Origin: Coffea arabica | Taxonomy: Eukaryota; Streptophyta; Magnoliopsida; Gentianales; Rubiaceae | Reading direction: 5' to 3' | Assembly: GCF_036785885.1 (NCBI RefSeq) | Contig: NC_092317.1 | Location: 8,744,501-8,808,500 of the forward strand | Length of the DNA: 64,000 bases | Shown here: piece by piece, positions 69-35,115 of the stretch | Layout of the letters: every line of letters starts with the position of its first letter | Numbering within the stretch: position 1 is the stretch's first letter | Program-made: the position numbers and the translations under genes | Notes under the pieces: generated by a model | The model's database searches: none | Told to the model about the DNA's origin: nothing | Seen by the model: the letters and a program-made list of their open reading frames with translations, nothing else

Positions 69-1970
<1,902 letters not shown>

Positions 1971-2586: not shown

Positions 2587-3364
2587 TCTATTTGGATTTC
2601 TCAATTTTTGAGAAACAAATTTTTTATATACAATGCTATAATAATACACAAACAAAAGCAACTCCAAAAACATCATATCTATACAAGATATCAAAAATAA
2701 TTTCAAATATATATAAAAAAATACACCACCATCCATCACTCTCCACCGCTATCACCACCCTCACGCCTACGACCCTCCTTCCTCCTTCTCTCTCTCCCCC
2801 CATCTTTCTTTCCTCTCTCCTCCTCCTCCTCCTCTCTTCCTCCTCTCTCTCTCTCTCATTCTCCTTCCTCCCTTCTCCCTTCCCTTTCCCTGCTCCCCAA
2901 TCCCCCCTCCCCTCTACTGACCGCAACCTTCTTGGTCACGACCAAATCTGATGGCGACTAGAAGGTCGCGGCCAAAAGCCACGACTCATGGCTTCTACTC
3001 TCGACCTTTTTGGTAGCAACCAAGAAGGTCACGATTAGAGTCGCAACCACCACCTGCGAATGAGAAGGGTTTGGAGTTAGGGAAAAGGAGGGGAGGGGAG
3101 AAGGGAGTTGAAAGAGGGAGTAGGAGGATGAGGGGGAGGAAAGATTGGCGAGGAGGGAGGGGGTGGTGGTGGTGGGTGGTATAAAATTAAAAAAAAAAAA
3201 ACCTTAAAAAAGTTACAAAATATAAAAATATCTTAAAATATTTTTAAAAATTCCTAAAAAAATATCTTAGAACAATTCAAAAAATATTTACAATAAAAGT
3301 TTTTTATATATATAGTTATAGTAAAATTTTTAAAAAATATTCTCAAAAATAGCTAATTCAAACA
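2587..3364. mobile_element. MITE-like inverted-repeat element with CT/AG tracts
   Basis: The ends form imperfect inverted repeats: the left begins ctatttggatttctcaattt, and the reverse complement of the right end begins ctgtttgaattagctatttt, both followed by TTGAGAA. Inside are a long C/T tract (about 2770-2910), a GC-richer core with repeats of the type GGTCGCGGCC/GGTCACGACC, and an A/G tract (about 3060-3175) that can pair with the C/T tract. No coding capacity. No clean target duplication was found. Non-autonomous DNA element of uncertain superfamily. Confidence 0.5.
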
Positions 3365-3399
3365 GAAAGGTGGCGGCAGCGGTACAATAATTGGGTTAT

Positions 3400-3735
3400 T
3401 GTTTTTAAAAGCGGGATGTTGCTGCGGTATGTTTAGTAATCAGAGAAGAGGTATGGAAAGTAAAACATATGGTAAACAAGGCGGCACGTTGCAACCTGAC
3501 ATGTATGGATCAAGAAGAGAATATTTCTACAAAAGTAAGTGGTGAGTCTGGTGACCTATAACCGGGGTTTGGAAATGTTGCGTACTGCAGAAGCTAAAAA
3601 TGTGTTGGGATGTCACGAAATTAATATAAATATAAAGGGCCTAAGAATAAAACATTTGTGAGGAAGCGTAAGCCGTAATAATTACTAAACAAAGCCATCC
3701 TGGGACCACTGATTATGGGCATTACATCAACAAAA
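3400..3735 (+). repeat. outer left inverted-repeat arm
   Basis: Pairs with 11535-11870 in reverse complement across most of its length, with a gap near 3490 where the right arm has about 12 extra bases. The outermost detectable match is a TTTTAAA block near 3402. Ends at the start of the 216-bp monomer (gcattacatcaacaaaatac). Confidence 0.6.
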
Positions 3736-3900
3736 TACTATCTATTTATGGGTTTTTTATTCTGAATCATTGCATTTATGTAAAATACATAAATATTTTG
3801 GATAGCACGGATATTCACACTAGTTGTCCTTGTACTAAGTTTTATGGGCATTTTACTCTGAATCATTACATTTTGGATACTACTTTGATTAGAATTTAGT
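3711..3900 (-). repeat. interrupted 216-bp monomer (left arm)
   Basis: The stretch containing ATTACATCAACAAAATAC, then CTATTTATGGG, then CTGAATCATTGCATTTATG is the reverse complement of the monomers at 10860-11535. It is broken near 3800 by a short Helitron-terminus-like sequence and then partly repeated (tgggcattttactctgaatc at about 3844). Confidence 0.55.
3803..3834 (+). mobile_element. Helitron 3'-end-like fragment (partial)
   Basis: Contains AGCACGGATATTCACACTAG followed by TTGTCCTTGTA. It matches the fuller Helitron-like terminus ending at 5795, including the bases after CTAG, but lacks the left half of the hairpin. Non-coding relic. Confidence 0.35.
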
Positions 3901-4124
3901 TTAAAGACATTCACTGGAGTTTGGACGTATCCAGAAAGCACCGATCGATGTATGTTCAAGCGTAAATTGAAATAAATATGCAACTTAAAATTTTTAAAAA
4001 TAAATTACTACTGCATATCCGAAATTTACTTTTTGGAGAGTAGGTTTAGTTCACACTATTTTTCATAGTATTTTAAAATATATAAGTACAAAAAATTTTA
4101 AATTATACCTATAATCATGTATTA

Positions 4125-4640
4125 TACGAGTATATTATGAGTACTTACTAACTAAGGTACTAAACTTTAATCATTAATAAAACATCTTATCGTTATTTCA
4201 AATAAACTTTCTAATACTAGTTTGAGATAAGTTTTAAAGTAAAATAGTGCATGCGTCCCATAAATCAATAAATCTTGATTATTAATCAAATTTGCCATGT
4301 TATCAGTAATAATTACTATTTATGTATAAAAACTTACTATTACTTGAATTAAACTTACTAAGGTATATTATGAGTGCTTACTAACTAAGGTACTAAGTTT
4401 TAATCATTAAAAAAAACATCTAAGTTTTAATCATTAATAAAAACATCTTATCATTATTTCAAATAAACTTCCTAATACTACTTTGAGATAAGGTTTTAAT
4501 GTAAAAATTGTACATGCATTCCAAAAAATGGTAAATTTTGATCCTTAATCATTTTTATTGCCATGTTATTAGTAAGAATTACTATTTATGTATAAAAACT
4601 TACTGTTATTTGAACTAAACTTACTCTTTTAAAAGTAAGT
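4125..4640 (+). repeat. two direct copies of a ~240-bp unit
   Basis: The run from about 4127 (tatattatgagtacttacta) recurs from about 4362 with small changes. Both copies go on to AAACATCTTATC, TTGAGATAAG, GCCATGTTAT and ACTATTTATGTATAAAAACT. The second copy has an extra short duplication of CTAAGTTTTAATCATTAA near 4390-4435. Non-coding. Confidence 0.65.
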
Positions 4641-5760
4641 TTGGGATATCAAGTAGTAATCTATTTATTTAAAAATTAAGTTTAATATTTATTCCAATTT
4701 ACCTTTGAGGTATAAAAGTTACTAATCTATTACACTTAACTTACTATTTTAGATAGGAAACTTGCTTCCATAATTTTAGGTGTTATTTTATTTAGGTGAA
4801 CAGGTCCAACAATAAATCAAATGATCGCTAAAAGTGCAACAATATGTTATATCAAGTAAAAACTATTTCGCTATCATAACTATCGTTTAGTATCTATATC
4901 TATATGTATTGCTGAGGGGGTTTTGGATAAGGAGTTTCCAAAATTATCAAAAGTCTGAATGCTATTTTAATAGAATTTTACATTTTTATAATTAAAAAAT
5001 ATTTATCTCTTAACTAATCATGTAACCGGCCCTACAAATCCTATAATCATGCTTATATTTTTTTCCACATTTCCCTCATGTTTTTTCCACTACCCCATAA
5101 AATTCAAACTCCTAAACTTTAACTAACGGATAATAACCACCCCTGTAAAATGATATCTGCAAATTCCAATTCACATCTCACATTTATTACTGACACTTAT
5201 CATATCACTTAGAGTAATAACTAACCGTTAATTTAAGAAATTCGTAACTACGAAAGTCAAATATCCAAAATTTGGGAGCCTGTTTAAATTACAATTTTCA
5301 CAATTCAACGTATCTTATTGTCATAATATATTTTACTCTCACAATCATTCACAAATTATAAAGGCATTAAAAATAAATAATTTTTTTAATAAAAATTAAT
5401 TCAAAGGTAGTTAATTCACACACATACACACACATATACATATATATATATATATTCTCATAATGCATATATATATAAGATTATCAAATCGAATGCATAA
5501 TATTGGTAAGTATTTCATTTTAAAATAAAAAACATGCAATTACATTTATTTCTATCCATAAATCATTCATTTTCTAATATAAATTATTATTATTAATTTA
5601 AGATCCATCTTTTGCAAAAACACAATTCTTGAATCATTTACAGTTTTTTTTCATACTTTGAACTATTGTTAGATAAATCTTAAATTTTAATTATGTTGGT
5701 ATAATTTTTTAAAATTTTTTCAAATTAAAATGGTATAATCTTTTGATTTATTTTAATAAT

Positions 5761-5806
5761 GTAAGCACCGTGTGTAGCACGGATATTCACACTAGCTGTC
5801 CTTGTA
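5761..5806 (+). mobile_element. Helitron-like 3' terminus
   Basis: A perfect 5-bp hairpin (CCGTG at 5768-5772, loop TGTAG, CACGG at 5778-5782) is followed by nine bases and CTAG (5792-5795). This is the layout of plant Helitron 3' ends. The base after CTAG is C rather than the expected T. No matching 5' TC terminus or Rep/helicase coding was found. Confidence 0.4.
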
Positions 5807-6059
5807 TGACCGAGCCTGAGAGTTTGAGCATGTTTTGGTTGAATGTTATAATTCAAAATTTGGGGTTTGGAGGGAATAGCTTATATCCATTCTAATCAAA
5901 ACTCAAACAAATGTGGGGACAAACCTGATTGTCACAACAAACTATACAAATGTGGGGATAAATCTTAGTTAGTAAGTACTCATAATATACCTGTATAATA
6001 AATGATTATAGGTATAATTTAATATTTTTTGTATTTATATATTTTAAAATACTATGAAA

Positions 6060-6694
6060 AGTAACCTTGTAAAATATATAATAAAATTGTAATAAACCCG
6101 TTTTCCAATAAAAAAATCAATTCTTTATCGCTTTCCTCCATTATAAGAACAAAGTACCCCTTTTCCTAAAAAAAAATTATTTATCGGATAAAATAAAAAT
6201 AAATCTGTTTTTCAATAAAATTTGAACTCTTTATGCCTTTCCTCTATTATAAGAATTGTGCACCTATTTTGGCATAAACAAATTTATTTATCAAATAAAA
6301 AAATTTATTTATCGAAAAAATAAAAATAAGCCCGTTTCTCAATAAAACATCAGCTCTTTATGGCTTTCTTCCCTTATAAGAAAACAGTATTCATTTTGCC
6401 ATAAACAAATTTGTTTATCAAATAAAATAAAAATAAACTCTTTTTTCAATAAAAAACTAGTTCTTTATGACTTTCCTCCGTTATAAGAATATAGTACCCA
6501 TTTTTCTAAAAAAATATTATTTATCGAATAAAATAAAAATGAACCCATTTTTTCAATAAAACACCAACTCTTTATAGTTTTCCTCTATTATAAGAACAAA
6601 GTACCCATTTTTTCATAAATAAATTTATTTATTGGTTGAAAAAATAAATATATTTTTCAATAAAACACCAATTCTTTATAGTTTTCCTTCGTTC
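6060..6694 (-). repeat. ~108-bp tandem array, left arm (about 5.5 copies)
   Basis: Each unit contains a block like CCTCCATTATAAGAACAAAGTACCC, then TTATTTATCGRATAAAATAAAAATAAA and TTTTTCAATAAAAC. The ATTATAAGAA block recurs near 6150, 6246, 6372, 6481 and 6588. Units are the reverse complement of the array at 9725-10125. AT-rich and non-coding. Confidence 0.75.
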
Positions 6695-6790
6695 ACTACA
6701 ACAAAAAAGGGTATTAGCGACAACAACTTTAGCAAGAAGTAGAAAGGTTGACGCTATTAAGAGGCTTATAGCAAGGAAAAGGACAATACT
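6695..6790 (+). mobile_element. CACTA-type transposon terminus
   Basis: Begins CACTACAACAAAAAAGGG followed by TATTAGCGACAAC. A CACTA terminus with a subterminal (T)TAGCGAC motif is characteristic of plant CACTA (En/Spm-like) elements. It sits exactly where the 108-bp array stops and HDS upstream sequence begins. I found no matching TAGTG end to the right, so the element is incomplete or its other end is lost. Confidence 0.45.
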
Positions 6791-9446
6791 TCACCAAAAA
6801 TTGGATCCATCATATACTCTGCAAGGGCAAGGACTTTTTTCGGTTAAAATTCTTGCCAAATGCCAAAAGAAGTGCGGGAAAACTTCCCTCCAAATACTGA
6901 TTCTTGCCAAAAGAAGTGCGGCTCCAACTCTACTGAATAATATAAGTACAGTCCAAGCCTCCAAATTTGTCTGAAACCCGTTGCTGATTTTTCCTCCTCT
7001 CAAAACTCCTCCAACCACCAAACTTTATTGTCCTTTTTCCCCCTCTTGATTCTTCCATCTCCAACGGAATCAAGCTTCATAATAAGAGGGGTTTTGTCTT
7101 AAAATCATACATTTTTTTGATTAGCTATTTAGCACAGTTTTTTCAGATTCTGGTAAGTTTTTTCTCAGCAGTTGTCCTTTGCTGAATTCTACTGCTGAAG
7201 TTATTTTTGATGCAAGCTTCTTTTGTGGGGTTGAAGGTTTCTGTGAATTTGATTGTTTTAAGCTTGATTTTAAGTTTCAAATAAAAACCATTTTACAGAA
7301 TTTAATGGGTTTTACATGTTTAATTGAGCGCAAGGTAAATTTTTGGGCTAAAAGTAATGGAGTTCCTTTGTTTTGATGGTTTAGGAGGGGAAAAGGTTCA
7401 GACTTTGGAGATAAAATGGCGACTGGAGCAGTTCCGGCTTCTTTTACAGGTCTAAAGAGCAGGGAAAATGGACTGGGTTTTGCAAAAAGCATGGAGTTTG
7501 TTAGAGTTTCCAACACTCAAAGGGTTAAATTTCGTCGAACCAAGGTTTCCGTAATAAAAAATTCAAATCCTGGACAGGAAATTGTTGAGCTTCAGCCTGC
7601 ATCAGAAGGGAGTCCACTATTAGGTATAATTTTTCAAAATGGACTATGCTAAGATGGAGTTTTGTGAAAATTTATATTCGCAGTTTACTTGCTTAATTAA
7701 TTTAGATGTCCCTATCCCTAAACAGACCCAGTAAATTGTTTGGTTTTAATTGCTGGGACCTACAATAATTTGCTTGAGAACTAAGAAATTTTTGGGTAGC
7801 TACATGAAAATTAAATCGCTCATCAAGATTTGATTTTCTTTTGAATGTTTTCTTGATGGTGGGAAAGCAGAAAGTTTGGTTGACTGTAATTGTGCTTGCC
7901 TGCATCGAAGTCTGATAACAAATTTCTTATTGTAGTTCCTAGACAAAAATATTGTGAGTCTGTGCACAAAACTATCAGGAGAAAAACTCGCACGGTGATG
8001 GTTGGCAACGTGGCTCTCGGTAGTGAGCATCCTATACGAGTTCAAACCATGACTACAATAGACACTAAAGATGTTGCTGGAACAGTTGAACAGGTGCTAT
8101 TTATTTCTGCTTCCATGATGGTTTTCTGTAATACATTTTTATTCAGTGATACGTCTTGATATGGAGAGCAAGTCCTATGTTTGTTTATTGAAAGATTTCC
8201 CTGGTTGAATGTTGGTAGCAGGTGGTGGGCGTGGACGTGGCTTGTAGTTCTTTAGCTAGCTGCAGAATCAACTTCCTTGGAGCAGAGTTGCCGATTTTAT
8301 ATGGCATTTTATAGTATTTGTTAAGGTACAGGATTGAAGAAAAATGACTGCTTTCTTGTAAAAGGACCGAGGTGTAAGGAAACTGTTTGTGTCCAATCAA
8401 CAAGCAAGCAATGTATTTTATAGTTCCATACATTATTTTGTTGGTACTTCTTTTGGCTGAACGAAATGTAAGTATTATGGAATCGTTATCTTTTCTTTCT
8501 ATCTCGAGTAATTTTCAGTTTTTGATGGACTTCTAATCCTTATAAGAAATTACATCGTGAGAACTTCTTGACTGCAATCCTATCAATTACTCAGGTATCA
8601 CATGGTTAGACTGTGGAAGCCTGCAACTTTCCTCTTGCTGGATTCTACAGAATCTGGCTGGTGAGGTTTTTACTTGGTGTGCTATATATTTGGCGTATTT
8701 AAAAGTTCATTCATCTTATGGGCCCATTCCCCCTCAGCCAAACAAACAAAGTGGGAATGAAGAAGACGAAGAAGAATCTGGTTGATGCCTGTGTATAGAT
8801 GGCCATGTTCCATTTTGGATTTGCTTTGATTGAGTCTTGACTTGCATTGTTTACTAGGTGTGATTGGGGGTACTTAAACTTATAGGGGTTTTTATAGGGT
8901 TTATCAAGCAATAAAACTTTGCGGGAGAAAAAAGAAAACTTGCTGGATGTTAACAACTTTTCTCTGTTCTCGACAATGGGATTTGGAAATGAAACCAGAC
9001 AGCAGAACTAATGTGAATTAAGAACACATCTTTTTCTTAAAGTAGAGACAATTTGTAAAATGAAGCATGAGTGTAATCACCTATTGTACTTTTCGCATCT
9101 CCTCTAAAAGTTTGTGTGCATCTAAGCTTAACATTTCTAGAATGAAGAATGCTGCAGTTTGAATTGCAATTGATTTTTTGAACTGTTTATATAAGCTGAA
9201 ACTTTTTAGAACATAAATTTGGCCATAAACTAGGAGTGACAAACAATTCAAGCAGTTAACTTGTTTTTGATAGTTTGGAAGCAATGGCATGCTTGTCATC
9301 CTTTAATGATGTCCACTGAAGCACTTATCCTCAGGGTTAAGTGTTACTTGTTGTAGGTGATGGGGTTAGCTGATAAAGGAGCAGACTTAGTTCGAATAAC
9401 TCTTCAAGGGAAGAGAGAGGCAGATGCATGTTATGATTTGATTTGA
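6791..9446 (+). pseudogene. HDS: truncated HDS (4-hydroxy-3-methylbut-2-enyl diphosphate synthase), 5' portion
   Basis: HDS (ispG/GcpE) is the plastid iron-sulfur enzyme of the MEP pathway that converts MEcPP to HMBPP. Here only the 5' part exists: a TATA-like TATAAGTA at 6941, a probable 5'-UTR intron (about 7152-7384), and coding exons 7416-7623, 7936-8093 and 9357-9446, all with GT-AG junctions and an unbroken frame. The product would be 151 aa: a Ser/Lys/Arg-rich plastid transit region, then the start of the TIM barrel ([58 protein letters not shown]). At about residue 147 it leaves the family sequence and stops (DACYDLI). Full plant HDS is about 740 aa, so most of the barrel and all cluster-binding cysteines are absent. 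It cannot be a working enzyme, but the open frame means a short plastid-targeted product or regulatory transcript is possible. Confidence 0.8.
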
Positions 9447-9724
9447 GTATCTTTGTGCTTTGTACTGTTGATAGTATTGGTTGTAATATATTGTTGCTCG
9501 TTTTGTATTTGTAATGACAAATTGGTTTGTTATTTCATATAAAATTTTTGCTATATCTCAATATTGACATTAATGATACCTCTTGCTAAATAAATGGTTG
9601 AAAAAAAAAAGTAGCAACTACAGTCACAAAGCTACTTTTGGCAACTTTCTTGCAAAAAAATCATCTTGCTGCATTTGATCATCTTTGCTATGGGGTCGAT
9701 GGTTTCTAATTAAAGAAGTTACTT
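9447..9724. other. junction between HDS fragment and right repeat arm
   Basis: HDS similarity stops near 9435. The following AT-rich stretch has no coding sign. It contains GTAGCAACTACAG and AGCTACTTTTGGCAAC (9611-9650), weakly reminiscent of a CACTA subterminal region in reverse, but no CACTA end. Confidence 0.35.
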
Positions 9725-10125
9725 GTTTATGACAAAATGGGCACTCTTTTCTTATAATGCAGAAAAGTCATAAAGAGTTGATGTTTTATTGAAAAATGAG
9801 TTTATTTTTATTTTATCCGATAAACAAATTTCTTTTTGCCTTCAAAATGGGTACTCTGTTCTTATAATGGAGGAAAGTCATAAAGAGCTGGTGTTTTATT
9901 GAAAAAAAGGGTTTATTTTTATTTTATTTGATAAATAAATTTGTTTATGGAAAAATGGGTACTCTGTTCTTATAATATAGAAAAGCCATAAAGAGCTGAT
10001 TTTTTATTAGAAAATGGATTTATTTTTATTTTATTCGATAAATAAATTTAGTTATGAAAAAATGGGTACTCTGTTCTTATAATGGAGGAAAGCCATAAAG
10101 AGCTGGTCTTTTTTGGGAAAGTGAT
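9725..10125 (+). repeat. ~108-bp tandem array, right arm (about 4 copies)
   Basis: Units contain AAAATGGGTACTCTGTTCTTATAATGGAGGAAAGTCATAAAGAGCTGG-type sequence. The GGGYACTC block starts at 9739, 9849, 9957 and 10064, giving spacings of 107-110 bp. Orientation is opposite to the array at 6060-6694. Confidence 0.75.
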
Positions 10126-10859
10126 ACTTTACACAAAGTGACCGCGATTTGGTTTATGAAATAATCCCAAATAAAAATTTAGAATGAATTTATTTGTTTT
10201 GAAATTTGTATAACGGTTGTTAAAATTTTAAAGATTGGCAAAAAAATTTTGGGGTTACAGAAAGGCAGAGCGAAGAAGGAGAAGAATTGAGTTTTTTGTC
10301 CGTTGCAATTGTTCTATTAAAAATGGCTCTATTCGATTTTACCCATTTTTTGTTGGGTAAAATCGTTGGTTCTAACGATTAATTCTTCATTTCCCGTCAA
10401 TTGTCCTTAATTGGCCAAAATTACGAAACTTTGAGGATGCAATATGTTTGGGGTGAAATTTTGAGGATGAAAAGTGCATTTTTTCGTATAAGATATTTAA
10501 TCAAATGTTATTTCTTGTCTTAATTTTAGTTATGACTATGCTACATATTTATTAAATAGACATACCTTTATAATTAAAGTTAATATTTGATATTTTTGGA
10601 TGTCATATATTTAAATAGATGAAAATTATTTTGAACATAACATATTAAAATAATTTTATTTATCAATCATTTTGGCCCTTCCATCAAGGAAAAAATCTTG
10701 GTTTCGTCACTGCCTAGGAGGAAATTGGGGTCTATTGCTAACAAAAGACTGTGAAAATTTACCTTTATATCCTAATTATTTGAAAAAAAAAATCTAATGA
10801 ACAAATTTTGCAAAAGAAACCTTGTTTCTTACCAACAAATTAAGTAACTAATAAAATCA
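10126..10859. other. AT-rich spacer between the right-arm arrays
   Basis: No open frame of note and no recognised gene. It contains a small inverted repeat (TTTTACCCA...TGGGTAAAA at about 10340-10365). It probably holds one or more unrecognised transposon remnants. Confidence 0.4.
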
Positions 10860-11535
10860 CCTTTAATATTGCTTTAACATATTTAATTTATGTTAAATAC
10901 AAATTTTACCAGTTTCTCTTTTGTAAAAATATAAGTATATTACTTTTTCAATTTTAGTTACAAACATTTATGTATTTTATGTAAATGTAGTGATTCAGAG
11001 TAAAATGCCCATAAATAGCTAGTATTTTGTTGATGTAATGCAAAAAAATCCATAAAGAGCTGGTATATTATGGGCGCAATCTTTTTTACTTTCAAATATT
11101 TAAAATTTGTTAAATGCAAAATCTACTAGTTTTCCTTTCGTAAAAGTATAAGTATAATACTTTTTCAATTTTAGTTACAAACATATATGTATTTTATATA
11201 AATGTAATAATTCAGAGTAAAATACCCATAAATAGTTAGTATTTTGTTGATGTAATGCAAAAAACTCATAAAGAGCTGGTATGTTATGGGCAAAAATTTT
11301 TTACTTTCACATATTTAAAATTTGTTTAATATAAAATTTACTAGTTTCCCTTTCGTAAAAATATTAGTGTAACACTTTTTCAATTTTAGTTACAAATATT
11401 TATGTATTTTATATAAATGTAATGATTCAGAATAAAATACCCGTAAATAGCTAGTGTTTTGTTGATGTAATGCAAAAAAAAAAAATTATAAAGAATAGGT
11501 ATGTTATGGGCAATATATTTTTTACTTTCATAAAA
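10860..11535 (+). repeat. ~216-bp tandem array, right arm (3 copies)
   Basis: The marker AGTRTTTTGTTGATGTAATG starts at 11021, 11238 and 11453 (spacings 217 and 215). Each unit also has ATTTTAGTTACAAAYAT, ATTCAGARTAAAATRCCC and a CTGGTATGTTATGGGC-like end. One interrupted unit lies inverted at 3711-3900. Confidence 0.75.
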
Positions 11536-11870
11536 ATCAGTTTATGTACCAAGCATGGCTGTGTTTAGTACTGCTTACCCTTTCTCTTTGGTGTTTTATT
11601 TCTAGACCCATTATATATATGTTAATTCCGTGACACCCCAATACATTTTCAACTTCTGCCATACACAACATTTCCAAACCGGCCCGTGCCTGTTATAAGT
11701 CACTATTTGCTTTTGTAAACATATTCCTTTCATCATCCGTACATGTCAGTTTCTTTGACATATTTTTTACCTTTCCACGTGCCTGCTTCTTTGCCATATA
11801 ATTTACTTTCCACACCTGTCTTTGAAATATGTGAATACACTACAGAATTTACCTTTAAAAGCGTATCACA
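11535..11870 (-). repeat. outer right inverted-repeat arm
   Basis: Reverse complement of 3400-3735 with scattered substitutions; includes TTAATTCCGTGACA (11622-11635), CATTTCCAAACC (11669-11680) and ATCCGTACATGTCAG (11735-11749). Apparent open frames here are incidental. Confidence 0.6.
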
Positions 11871-12392
11871 AAAGATTTGTGTTGGTGGATTTTGGGTCAT
11901 GGATTCTCGGATTTATGGTGTGTTGTGTCACGATTTAGAATCATTTTTTTATAGGTGGACCCGGGAAAATAATTAACAATTCTAAATATGTCAAGGCTCA
12001 AATCCTCAAAATAAATGAAATAAACGAGTCTTCTATCATCGACTCTATCGTTATGTGGACGGACTCGCAAGAGAGAAACCAGCCACATCTGTGATCTGAC
12101 ACCATGACAAGTCACAATTTGAACTGTGACCAATAATTTAATGCTAAGACCATTGAACTTTTAGCAACTCTAAAAGTCATAGTTGGGGGACTCGAAGCTA
12201 TAAAATTTTTTTTTTTTTTGGATTTCCCATTGATCCCTTGCATTTACCCCTTCCTTTTAACGTAGAATAAGATTAGAAGACTCGAAACTATAAAGATTTA
12301 TCGTGATTATAGAAATGCCTGCTAACTCGATTGATAACCATGTACTAATATAGTAATGTTGTGTTGTGATTTTCAACAAACATAATCTAAGG

Positions 12393-12537
12393 TTGTGTTT
12401 GGATTGCATTTTCTAAGATTTTTTGTAGAAAAATTACTGTAACGATTTGATATATGTAAGAAAAAAAAGTAATAAGAAAATATGATCACGAAAAACGATG
12501 CAATTTTTCGGCGAAAAATGGGTGTCTAAACAAGGCC
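12393..12537. mobile_element. short MITE
   Basis: Starts ggttgtgtttggattgcatt; the reverse complement of its right end starts ggccttgtttagacacccat. Together these give imperfect terminal inverted repeats of about 14 bp around an AT-rich interior with ATTACTGTAACGATT. About 145 bp, non-coding. The same TGTTTGGAT end type recurs at 33112-33464. Confidence 0.5.
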
Positions 12538-14076: not shown

Positions 14077-19885
<5,809 letters not shown>

Positions 19886-33111: not shown

Positions 33112-33300
33112 CATCCACTTGGATTAGCTGTTTTTGGAGGTATTTTTAAAAAATTTTATTACAACAGTGTATATAAAATTAATAAAATTTTTTTAAAATA
33201 TTTGATATATTAAATAGATGAGATGTTTTTTGAGTTACTGTATATTACTGTAATATTGTATTTGAAAAACTTATTTTTGAAAAAATGGCCAATCCAAACG
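33112..33300. mobile_element. MITE (TTTGGATTAGC type)
   Basis: Left ACTTGGATTAGCTGTTTTTG and right, reverse-complemented, CCGTTTGGATTGGCCATTTT are inverted repeats around an AT-rich core with ACTGTATATTACTGTAA. About 190 bp, non-coding. Directly abuts a second MITE. Confidence 0.55.
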
Positions 33301-34258: not shown

Positions 34259-35115
34259 TAGGGATGTAATCGAGCCAAATCAATACTCGAGCTCGACTCG
34301 ACTCATATGTACCTAGGTTCGAACTCGACTCGAGCTCGACCGAGTTCAAAAAATCAATACTCGAGGCTTGACCAAAGTTTGTAAAATCGGGATCCTACAT
34401 AGGATCGATTTTAGTTTCACAGGATCGGATCGTAGGATCGGATCGTAGAATCGTAAGATCCTACCAAAAGCTCTTAATTGCAATTAAAGGTTGCAATTCT
34501 TTGATAAATTACAAATATACCACAAATATTTTCATTTACTTGCAAAATGGAGCTTCGTATTTCACAAATTTACAAAAAAATTGTAGAATCGTACGATCCT
34601 ACCGATCCTGCTACGATTCTATGCGATCCTATAAAGATTAATATGATTTGCGACTCTGCATACGATCCGGATCGATTTTGGTTATCCGGATCGTAGGATC
34701 GTACGATCCTACGATCCGGATCGCGATTTTGACAACTATGGGCTTGACTAGAGGAACTCCCTTTAAGCTCGAAACTCGACTCGATAAGACTCGACCTTTA
34801 GGAAAGCCTTATCAAGTCGAATCTAATCAAGCTTCTTGACTCGACTCGGAAAATGTACACTTCTGCCCTTATGCAATTTTATTATAAAGAAGAGTATATT
34901 GTAAATTCAATATAAATTATACTCATAACGGTCATTTTATAATTATAATATATATATTATTTAAATACACCCCGACTCGACGAATAGCTTGACAAGCCAC
35001 GAGCCTCAAAATATTGGCTCGAAACTCGACTCAAATAACAATCGAGTAGCTCGAACTCGGTCAAACCGAGTTCAAGCCAAGCCACTCGCGAGTAGTTCGG
35101 CTCGCGTACATCCTA
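34259..35115. mobile_element. hAT element (857 bp including nested insert)
   Basis: Flanked by a perfect 8-bp duplication GTGTGGAA (34251-34258 and 35116-35123). Ends TAGGGATGTAATCGAGCC and, reverse-complemented, TAGGATGTACGCGAGCC. TAGGGATG-type ends and an 8-bp duplication are typical of Ac-like hAT transposons. The interior is full of CTCGACTCGAGCTCGA-type palindromes. No transposase, so non-autonomous. Inserted into the kinase-2 region of the NBS-LRR relic. Confidence 0.85.
34373..34740. mobile_element. second hAT-type MITE nested inside the first (368 bp)
   Basis: Flanked by a perfect 8-bp duplication GGCTTGAC (34365-34372 and 34741-34748). Ends CAAAGTTTGTAAAATCGGGA and, reverse-complemented, CATAGTTGTCAAAATCGCGA. 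The interior has many GGATCGTAGGATCG units and their complements and could fold into long hairpins. Non-coding. Its duplication lies wholly inside the outer element, so it arrived later. Confidence 0.85.

What the first reader, a model, noticed from the sequence alone, without database searches (positions are those of the whole stretch)
3400..11870. An 8.5-kb diverged inverted-repeat structure with an HDS promoter and first exons at its centre
The outer arms (3400-3735 and 11535-11870) are reverse complements, and the 108-bp arrays next to the centre are also mirrored. The middle is the 5' part of a real MEP-pathway gene. No transposase is visible. This looks like a gene-capturing foldback or Mutator-type element, or an inverted duplication, and I do not know it as a described family. 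A hairpin transcript over the arms could feed small-RNA production.
Basis: partly seen in the sequence, partly recalled or inferred. Interest (0 to 1): 0.75.

Follow-up and report, generated by a model that had tools for sequence, protein, structure and literature searches.

The report
Plant transposon carrying HDS gene fragment
This looks like an old plant jumping gene of the Mutator type, with long repeat-filled ends, that carries a copied front part of an isoprenoid-pathway gene; it is a well-formed example of a known kind of element rather than something new.

Summary
The interval is bounded by diverged inverted arms (207 of 258 ungapped positions alike; 0 of 300 shuffles reach the score) and two mirrored ~107-bp arrays. 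TTTAAAAGCG stands in direct orientation just outside both arm ends and nowhere else in 64 kb, as a Mutator-type (MULE) target-site duplication would; its TTTTAAAA core is self-complementary, which weakens this. With no transposase match in 39 of 41 ORFs, the best reading is a non-autonomous Pack-MULE (3414-11853) with foldback-type TIRs. Its cargo is the 5' part of HDS (GcpE) with introns: 151 codons, then a stop. The rest of HDS is not in the window, so it is a fragment, not the gene. A CACTA-type terminus starts at 6694, exactly where the left array is cut, so HDS may have come in with a CACTA element; no right CACTA end was found. A Helitron-type 3' end lies in the left arm. No arm carries HDS sequence, so arm-derived siRNAs would not directly target HDS. 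MULEs with tandem TIRs and gene cargo are published. No plant genome was available for sister copies, parent gene or empty site.

The parts
3404..3413 (+). left copy of the target-site duplication TTTAAAAGCG (9 or 10 bp)
   Evidence: two exact occurrences in the window, both strands searched; the only direct match of 7 bp or more between 3360-3460 and 11810-11910
3414..3718 (+). left outer terminal inverted repeat
   Evidence: 207/258 ungapped identity to the right end, 0/300 shuffles
3719..3873 (+). left-arm parts of the 215-bp repeat (3719-3798, 3841-3873) with a Helitron-end-like piece between them
3874..6074 (.). left-arm spacer: 94% inverted pair 4057-4156/5964-6063, internal duplications between 4079 and 4625, Helitron-type 3' end; not matched overall by the right arm
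5768..5795 (+). Helitron-type 3' end: hairpin CCGTG-TGTAG-CACGG, 9 nt, CTAG
   Evidence: only such hairpin in the window, 0.00 expected; last 20 nt repeated at 3804-3823
6075..6693 (+). left inner array of ~107-bp units, cut by the CACTA-type terminus
6694..6960 (+). CACTA-type left terminus CACTACAACAAAAAAGGG... with a cluster of GCAAG words; inner limit not determined
   Evidence: only zero-mismatch match of 14 to the terminal pattern; 6 GCAAG words in 6695-6960
7416..7623 (+). HDS exon 1 copy
   Evidence: tblastn E 2.4e-17 to a recalled Arabidopsis HDS; reading
7936..8093 (+). HDS exon 2 copy
   Evidence: tblastn E 6.7e-26; GT/AG sites
9357..9446 (+). HDS exon 3 copy, homology to about 9440, TGA at 9444-9446
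   Evidence: tblastn E 3.0e-8; joined reading of 151 aa matches GcpE profile positions 1-62 of 343
9447..9703 (.). stretch without HDS homology, possible CACTA subterminal remnant; no CACTA right terminus
   Evidence: 3 GCAAG words in 9441-9735; weak alignment; no right terminus
9704..10123 (-). right inner array of ~107-bp units, mirrored to the left one
10865..11530 (-). right-arm 215-bp array, 3 copies
11535..11853 (-). right outer terminal inverted repeat
11854..11863 (+). right copy of the target-site duplication TTTAAAAGCG

Best explanation
A non-autonomous Mutator-like transposon (Pack-MULE) of 8.4 kb, about 3414-11853, with composite foldback-type TIRs: an outer ~300-bp repeat, then 215-bp units, then ~107-bp units. 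It was moved in trans by a MULE transposase encoded elsewhere and duplicated 9-10 bp of target on insertion (end structure and direct repeat shown; transposition and trans-acting transposase inferred). Its cargo is a DNA-level copy of the HDS promoter-side region to exon 3 (exons and introns shown; promoter content inferred). The CACTA-type terminus that cuts the left array suggests that HDS came in with a CACTA element whose right end was lost (inferred, about 45%); otherwise the MULE took up HDS itself and the CACTA end is a separate fragment. Later insertions, one of them Helitron-like, lengthened the left arm (inferred). The element now looks old and probably immobile (inferred).
For: Arms far above chance. 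TTTAAAAGCG occurs twice in the window, in direct orientation, at the two arm ends, and is the only direct match of 7 bp or more between the two 101-bp end regions; 564 of 198,805 random pairs of 40-bp places share 10 bp or more. Both termini then read GG. Array units do not cluster by arm: with all ten, 163 of 210 labelings have a within-minus-between difference as high or higher; with L6 and R1 left out the observed value is the lowest of 56, so the arms probably shared an array before they diverged. HDS residues up to ~148 only, introns kept; elsewhere in 64 kb only hits with E of 3.7 or more. No transposase match in 39 of 41 ORFs of 50 aa or more.
Against: TTTTAAA at the ends also matches in inverted orientation (3403/11860), being nearly self-complementary. 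If it belongs to the TIR, only the next GCG speaks for a duplication; 24 of 820 pairs of TTTAAAA sites on the + strand agree in their next three bases, so the coincidence is then about 3%. Sister copies, a MULE transposase and the empty site could not be sought. Arms differ by 20% while the duplication is 10 of 10 alike, so the arms would have differed already at insertion. The arm spacers are not alike overall.
Confidence: 0.75

Rival explanations
1. An inverted segmental duplication or foldback structure made by replication or repair, not by transposition.
For: Arms are composite, diverged and not collinear throughout; the end 10-mer has a self-complementary core that also matches in inverted orientation.
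Against: Direct 10-bp match at both ends, with GCG following TTTAAAA at only 2 of 41 sites in the window; the outer arms end abruptly on both sides.
Confidence: 0.15
2. The gene-capturing unit is a CACTA element (Pack-CACTA, 6694 to about 9703) that brought HDS and lies inside a MULE without gene cargo of its own. This is a variant of the best explanation, not exclusive of it.
For: CACTACAACAAAAA terminus with no mismatch exactly at the array break; GCAAG words on both sides of HDS, 9 in 561 bp against 0.6 in shuffles and about 1.2 at the rate of the whole window (132 in 64 kb); Pack-CACTAs, found with the terminus CACTACAA, are described in Arabidopsis.
Against: No right terminus found, so no 3-bp duplication can be shown. 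The inverted left-right alignment is weak (2 of 300 shuffles reach it) and the direct one does nearly as well (6 of 300). Three GCAAG words, as on the right, are seen in 40 of 1275 sliding windows.
Confidence: 0.45
3. A real HDS gene into which the repeats inserted.
For: Exons 1-3 keep an open reading and GT/AG sites.
Against: No hit to residues beyond ~150 of a recalled HDS sequence of roughly 740 residues in the 64 kb except E of 4.9 and 7.6; the copy lies inside the TIRs; exon 3 differs from the recalled Arabidopsis sequence at 8 of 28 residues.
Confidence: 0.03

Closest known systems
MULEs with multiple/tandem TIRs, including the tomato Pack-MULE family PM-ZIBP (Ferguson and Jiang 2012, PMC3310237; seen: abstract, Results part 1 of 2, Discussion)
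   Same: Non-autonomous, long TIRs with internal duplication, target-site duplication, gene-fragment cargo
   Different: There an almost whole TIR is duplicated; here the TIR holds arrays of ~107- and 215-bp units, unequal between the arms; copy number here unknown
Tm1 Mutator/Foldback family of root-knot nematodes (PMC3169594; passages seen); plant foldback elements FARE and Tnr8 (seen only in its reference list)
   Same: Composite TIRs with tandem repeats, 8-10-bp duplications
   Different: Tm1 repeats are ~14 bp and the host is an animal; no sequence comparison was made
Pack-CACTA elements (PMC8903248; passages seen)
   Same: CACTACAA-type terminus next to gene-fragment cargo
   Different: Right terminus not found here, so no duplication can be shown

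Membership tests
Mutator-like element (MULE) | long terminal inverted repeats | tested here: met
   outer TIR of ~300 bp, 207/258 ungapped positions alike
Mutator-like element (MULE) | 8-11-bp target-site duplication | tested here: met
   TTTAAAAGCG at both ends only; caveat: self-complementary core
Mutator-like element (MULE) | TIR sequence shared with elements that encode a MULE transposase | not testable with these tools
   no genome is held for the window
Pack-MULE | fragment of a host gene between the TIRs, with the parent gene elsewhere | tested here: inconclusive
   fragment present and truncated; the parent gene could not be sought
Foldback element | TIRs made up of tandem repeats | tested here: met
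   mirrored ~107-bp arrays; the 215-bp array is mostly right-sided
CACTA element (6694 onward) | CACTA terminal inverted repeat at both ends | tested here: not met
   left end exact, no right end
CACTA element (6694 onward) | 3-bp target-site duplication | tested here: inconclusive
   cannot be assessed without the right end
Helitron (left arm) | 3' hairpin shortly before a CTRR end | tested here: met
   hairpin 5768-5782, CTAG 5792-5795
Helitron (left arm) | 5' TC end and insertion between A and T | tested here: inconclusive
   base 5796 after CTAG is C, base 3824 after the second CTAG is T; no search for a 5' end was made

The most novel reading that the evidence does not exclude
A gene-capturing MULE whose TIRs grow by satellite-like unit expansion kept in step between both arms, built in two steps (CACTA with HDS, then MULE), and whose HDS copy is still expressed, as a 151-residue truncated HDS protein or as a long hairpin RNA over the arms.
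Probability: 0.06. Interest if true: 0.6.

Novelty: new member of a known kind. Interest (0 to 1): 0.3.

Why it matters
It shows marks of three transposon types (MULE, CACTA, Helitron) layered around one captured gene front with its first exons and splice sites still open. Such pieces can seed chimeric genes. The kind of event is well known; the specific interest is the possible two-step capture (CACTA inside MULE) and the likeness of array units between the arms.

Tried and rejected
Rejected or disfavoured: intact HDS gene split by insertions; a known RNA family (no gathering-score match in 3000-12500); other copies of the element within the window (only one 60-bp flank match); separate growth of the two arrays after the arms diverged (units do not cluster by arm); direct silencing of HDS by an arm hairpin (none of the 49 repeat pairs touches the HDS part).

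Led nowhere: whole-genome search; a duplication flanking the 94% inverted pair 4057-4156/5964-6063 (by eye, none seen); papers on HDS fragments in transposons (117 papers hold three of the five terms, ten listed, 0 of those ten hold the HDS term). Seven literature searches were made; I make no claim that this family is absent from print. The prokaryote, phage, plasmid and viral collections were not searched, since the gene content is plant-like (inferred). The host species was not identified. Two of the 41 ORFs, both across the right end (11733-11912, 11759-11938), were not scanned.

Full report
What was checked. The outer arms agree at 207 of 258 ungapped positions (3413-3720 against the reverse complement of 11535-11853), score 116 against a shuffle maximum of 21.0 in 300. 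The inner arrays, ~107-bp units at 6075-6693 and 9704-10123, are mirrored with 70-86% complementarity. A 215-bp array stands in the right arm (three copies, about 10865-11530) and only in parts in the left. The 107-bp and 215-bp arrays are distantly alike (62% over 280 columns).

Ends. Where the arms stop being alike, TTTAAAAGCG stands in direct orientation on both sides, at 3404-3413 and 11854-11863, and nowhere else in the window. It is the only direct match of 7 bp or more between the two 101-bp end regions. Among 198,805 random pairs of 40-bp places, 564 share 10 bp or more anywhere. The element then reads GGATGTTGCTG... on the left and GGTAAATTCTG... on the right. Long TIRs with an 8-11-bp duplication are the marks of Mutator-like elements (established knowledge; compare). 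The weak point: the core TTTTAAA is nearly self-complementary and also matches in inverted orientation (3403/11860). If it is counted as TIR, only the following GCG is independent evidence; 24 of 820 pairs of TTTAAAA sites on the + strand agree in their next three bases. The alignment then needs a 3-base gap at exactly this place, which a duplication explains without a gap.

Arms. If the arrays had grown separately in each arm, units would be more alike within arms. Mean identity is 73% within the left, 79% within the right and 76% between. With all ten units the within-minus-between difference is -0.012, and 163 of 210 labelings are as high or higher; without L6 and R1 it is -0.027, the lowest of 56. 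I chose to leave these two out after seeing the matrix (L6 is a 63-bp partial unit, R1 the outermost one on the right). The arms therefore probably shared an array before they diverged, or were homogenised. The spacers are not alike overall (15 of 300 shuffles reach the score); two short AT-rich pieces (4030-4200 against 10480-10660 inverted, 5960-6080 against 10540-10670 direct) just exceed all 300 shuffles (scores 34 and 31 against maxima 31 and 29) and count as marginal.

Centre. tblastn with an HDS protein recalled from memory finds 7416-7622, 7899-8108 and 9357-9440; for the rest of the protein only hits with E of 4.9 and 7.6 appear in the 64 kb (one further hit, E 3.7, concerns residues 92-111). 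With GT/AG sites the copy reads 151 residues to a TGA at 9444-9446. Pfam gives GcpE, E 5.1e-16, profile positions 1-62 of 343; four distinct solved HDS/IspG sequences match within residues 82-150. Introns are retained, so the copy is DNA-level. It holds only the start of the catalytic domain and should not be an active enzyme (inference).

CACTA and Helitron marks. At 6694 the left array is cut by CACTACAACAAAAAAGGGTATTAGCGACAAC. Of 14 matches to the CACTA end pattern with up to two mismatches (8.2 expected by chance) it is the only exact one; no right terminus was found. GCAAG words: 6 in 6695-6960 and 3 in 9441-9735, against 0.6 in shuffles of both; 9 in the 2.4 kb between, 132 in the whole window. 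The left-right alignment of the flanks is weak in inverted orientation (2 of 300 shuffles reach it) and hardly worse in direct orientation (6 of 300), so it gives little support. I hold CACTA delivery of the HDS piece at about even odds. In the left arm, 5768-5795 has the hairpin and CTAG of a Helitron 3' end, with a copy of the last 20 nt at 3804-3823.

Transposase and surroundings. Of 41 stop-to-stop ORFs of at least 50 aa that overlap 3400-11870, 39 were scanned against Pfam. The only match above a curated cut-off is GcpE in the HDS exon 2 ORF. Five sub-threshold matches (Reductase_C, BACON, SFTA2, TP6A_N, Herpes_UL6; E 0.01 to 0.085) are taken as chance; none is a transposase. Ten ORFs outside were scanned, of 88 listed at 80 aa or more in the window: an fn3_6 domain at 1383-1967, and Peptidase_S8 (15821-16534) and fn3_6 (19265-19882) downstream, suggest that the element lies between two subtilase genes (inference).

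RNA. The two arrays could form a strong duplex if transcribed together (-378 kcal/mol; 20 shuffles: mean -102, lowest -124), with the HDS copy in a ~3-kb loop. None of the 49 repeat pairs touches the HDS part, so siRNAs cut from such a hairpin would match the arrays, not HDS. Expression was not testable.

Conclusion. A non-autonomous Pack-MULE with foldback-type, repeat-filled TIRs, perhaps with a CACTA piece inside. Published MULEs with tandem TIRs and gene cargo (PMC3310237: abstract, Results part 1 of 2 and Discussion seen) and Mutator/foldback elements (PMC3169594: passages seen) make it a new member of a known kind. The main gap is the missing plant genome.

Noticed in passing
window 4057-4156 and 5964-6063: A 100-bp inverted pair, 94% identical (closer than the element's own arms), enclosing 1.8 kb with the Helitron-type end; no target-site duplication seen by eye. 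Possibly a further nested element.
   Followed up: partly
window 3804-3823 and 5776-5795: The last 20 nt of a Helitron-type 3' end occur twice, 1,972 bp apart, and the likeness runs about 11 bp beyond CTAG; the first copy lacks the first half of the hairpin and lies between pieces of the 215-bp repeat.
   Followed up: partly
window 1383-1967 and 15821-19882: Subtilase-type domains (fn3_6; Peptidase_S8 and fn3_6) in the same direction on either side of the element, suggesting tandem subtilase genes.
   Followed up: no
window 3302-3361 and 33119-33178: A 60-bp inverted match (80%) between the left flank of the element and a repeat at 33 kb.
   Followed up: no
window 34421-34453 and 34592-34630: Two short tandem repeats with GGATCGGATC-like words in opposite orientation, perhaps a small inverted-repeat element.
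   Followed up: no
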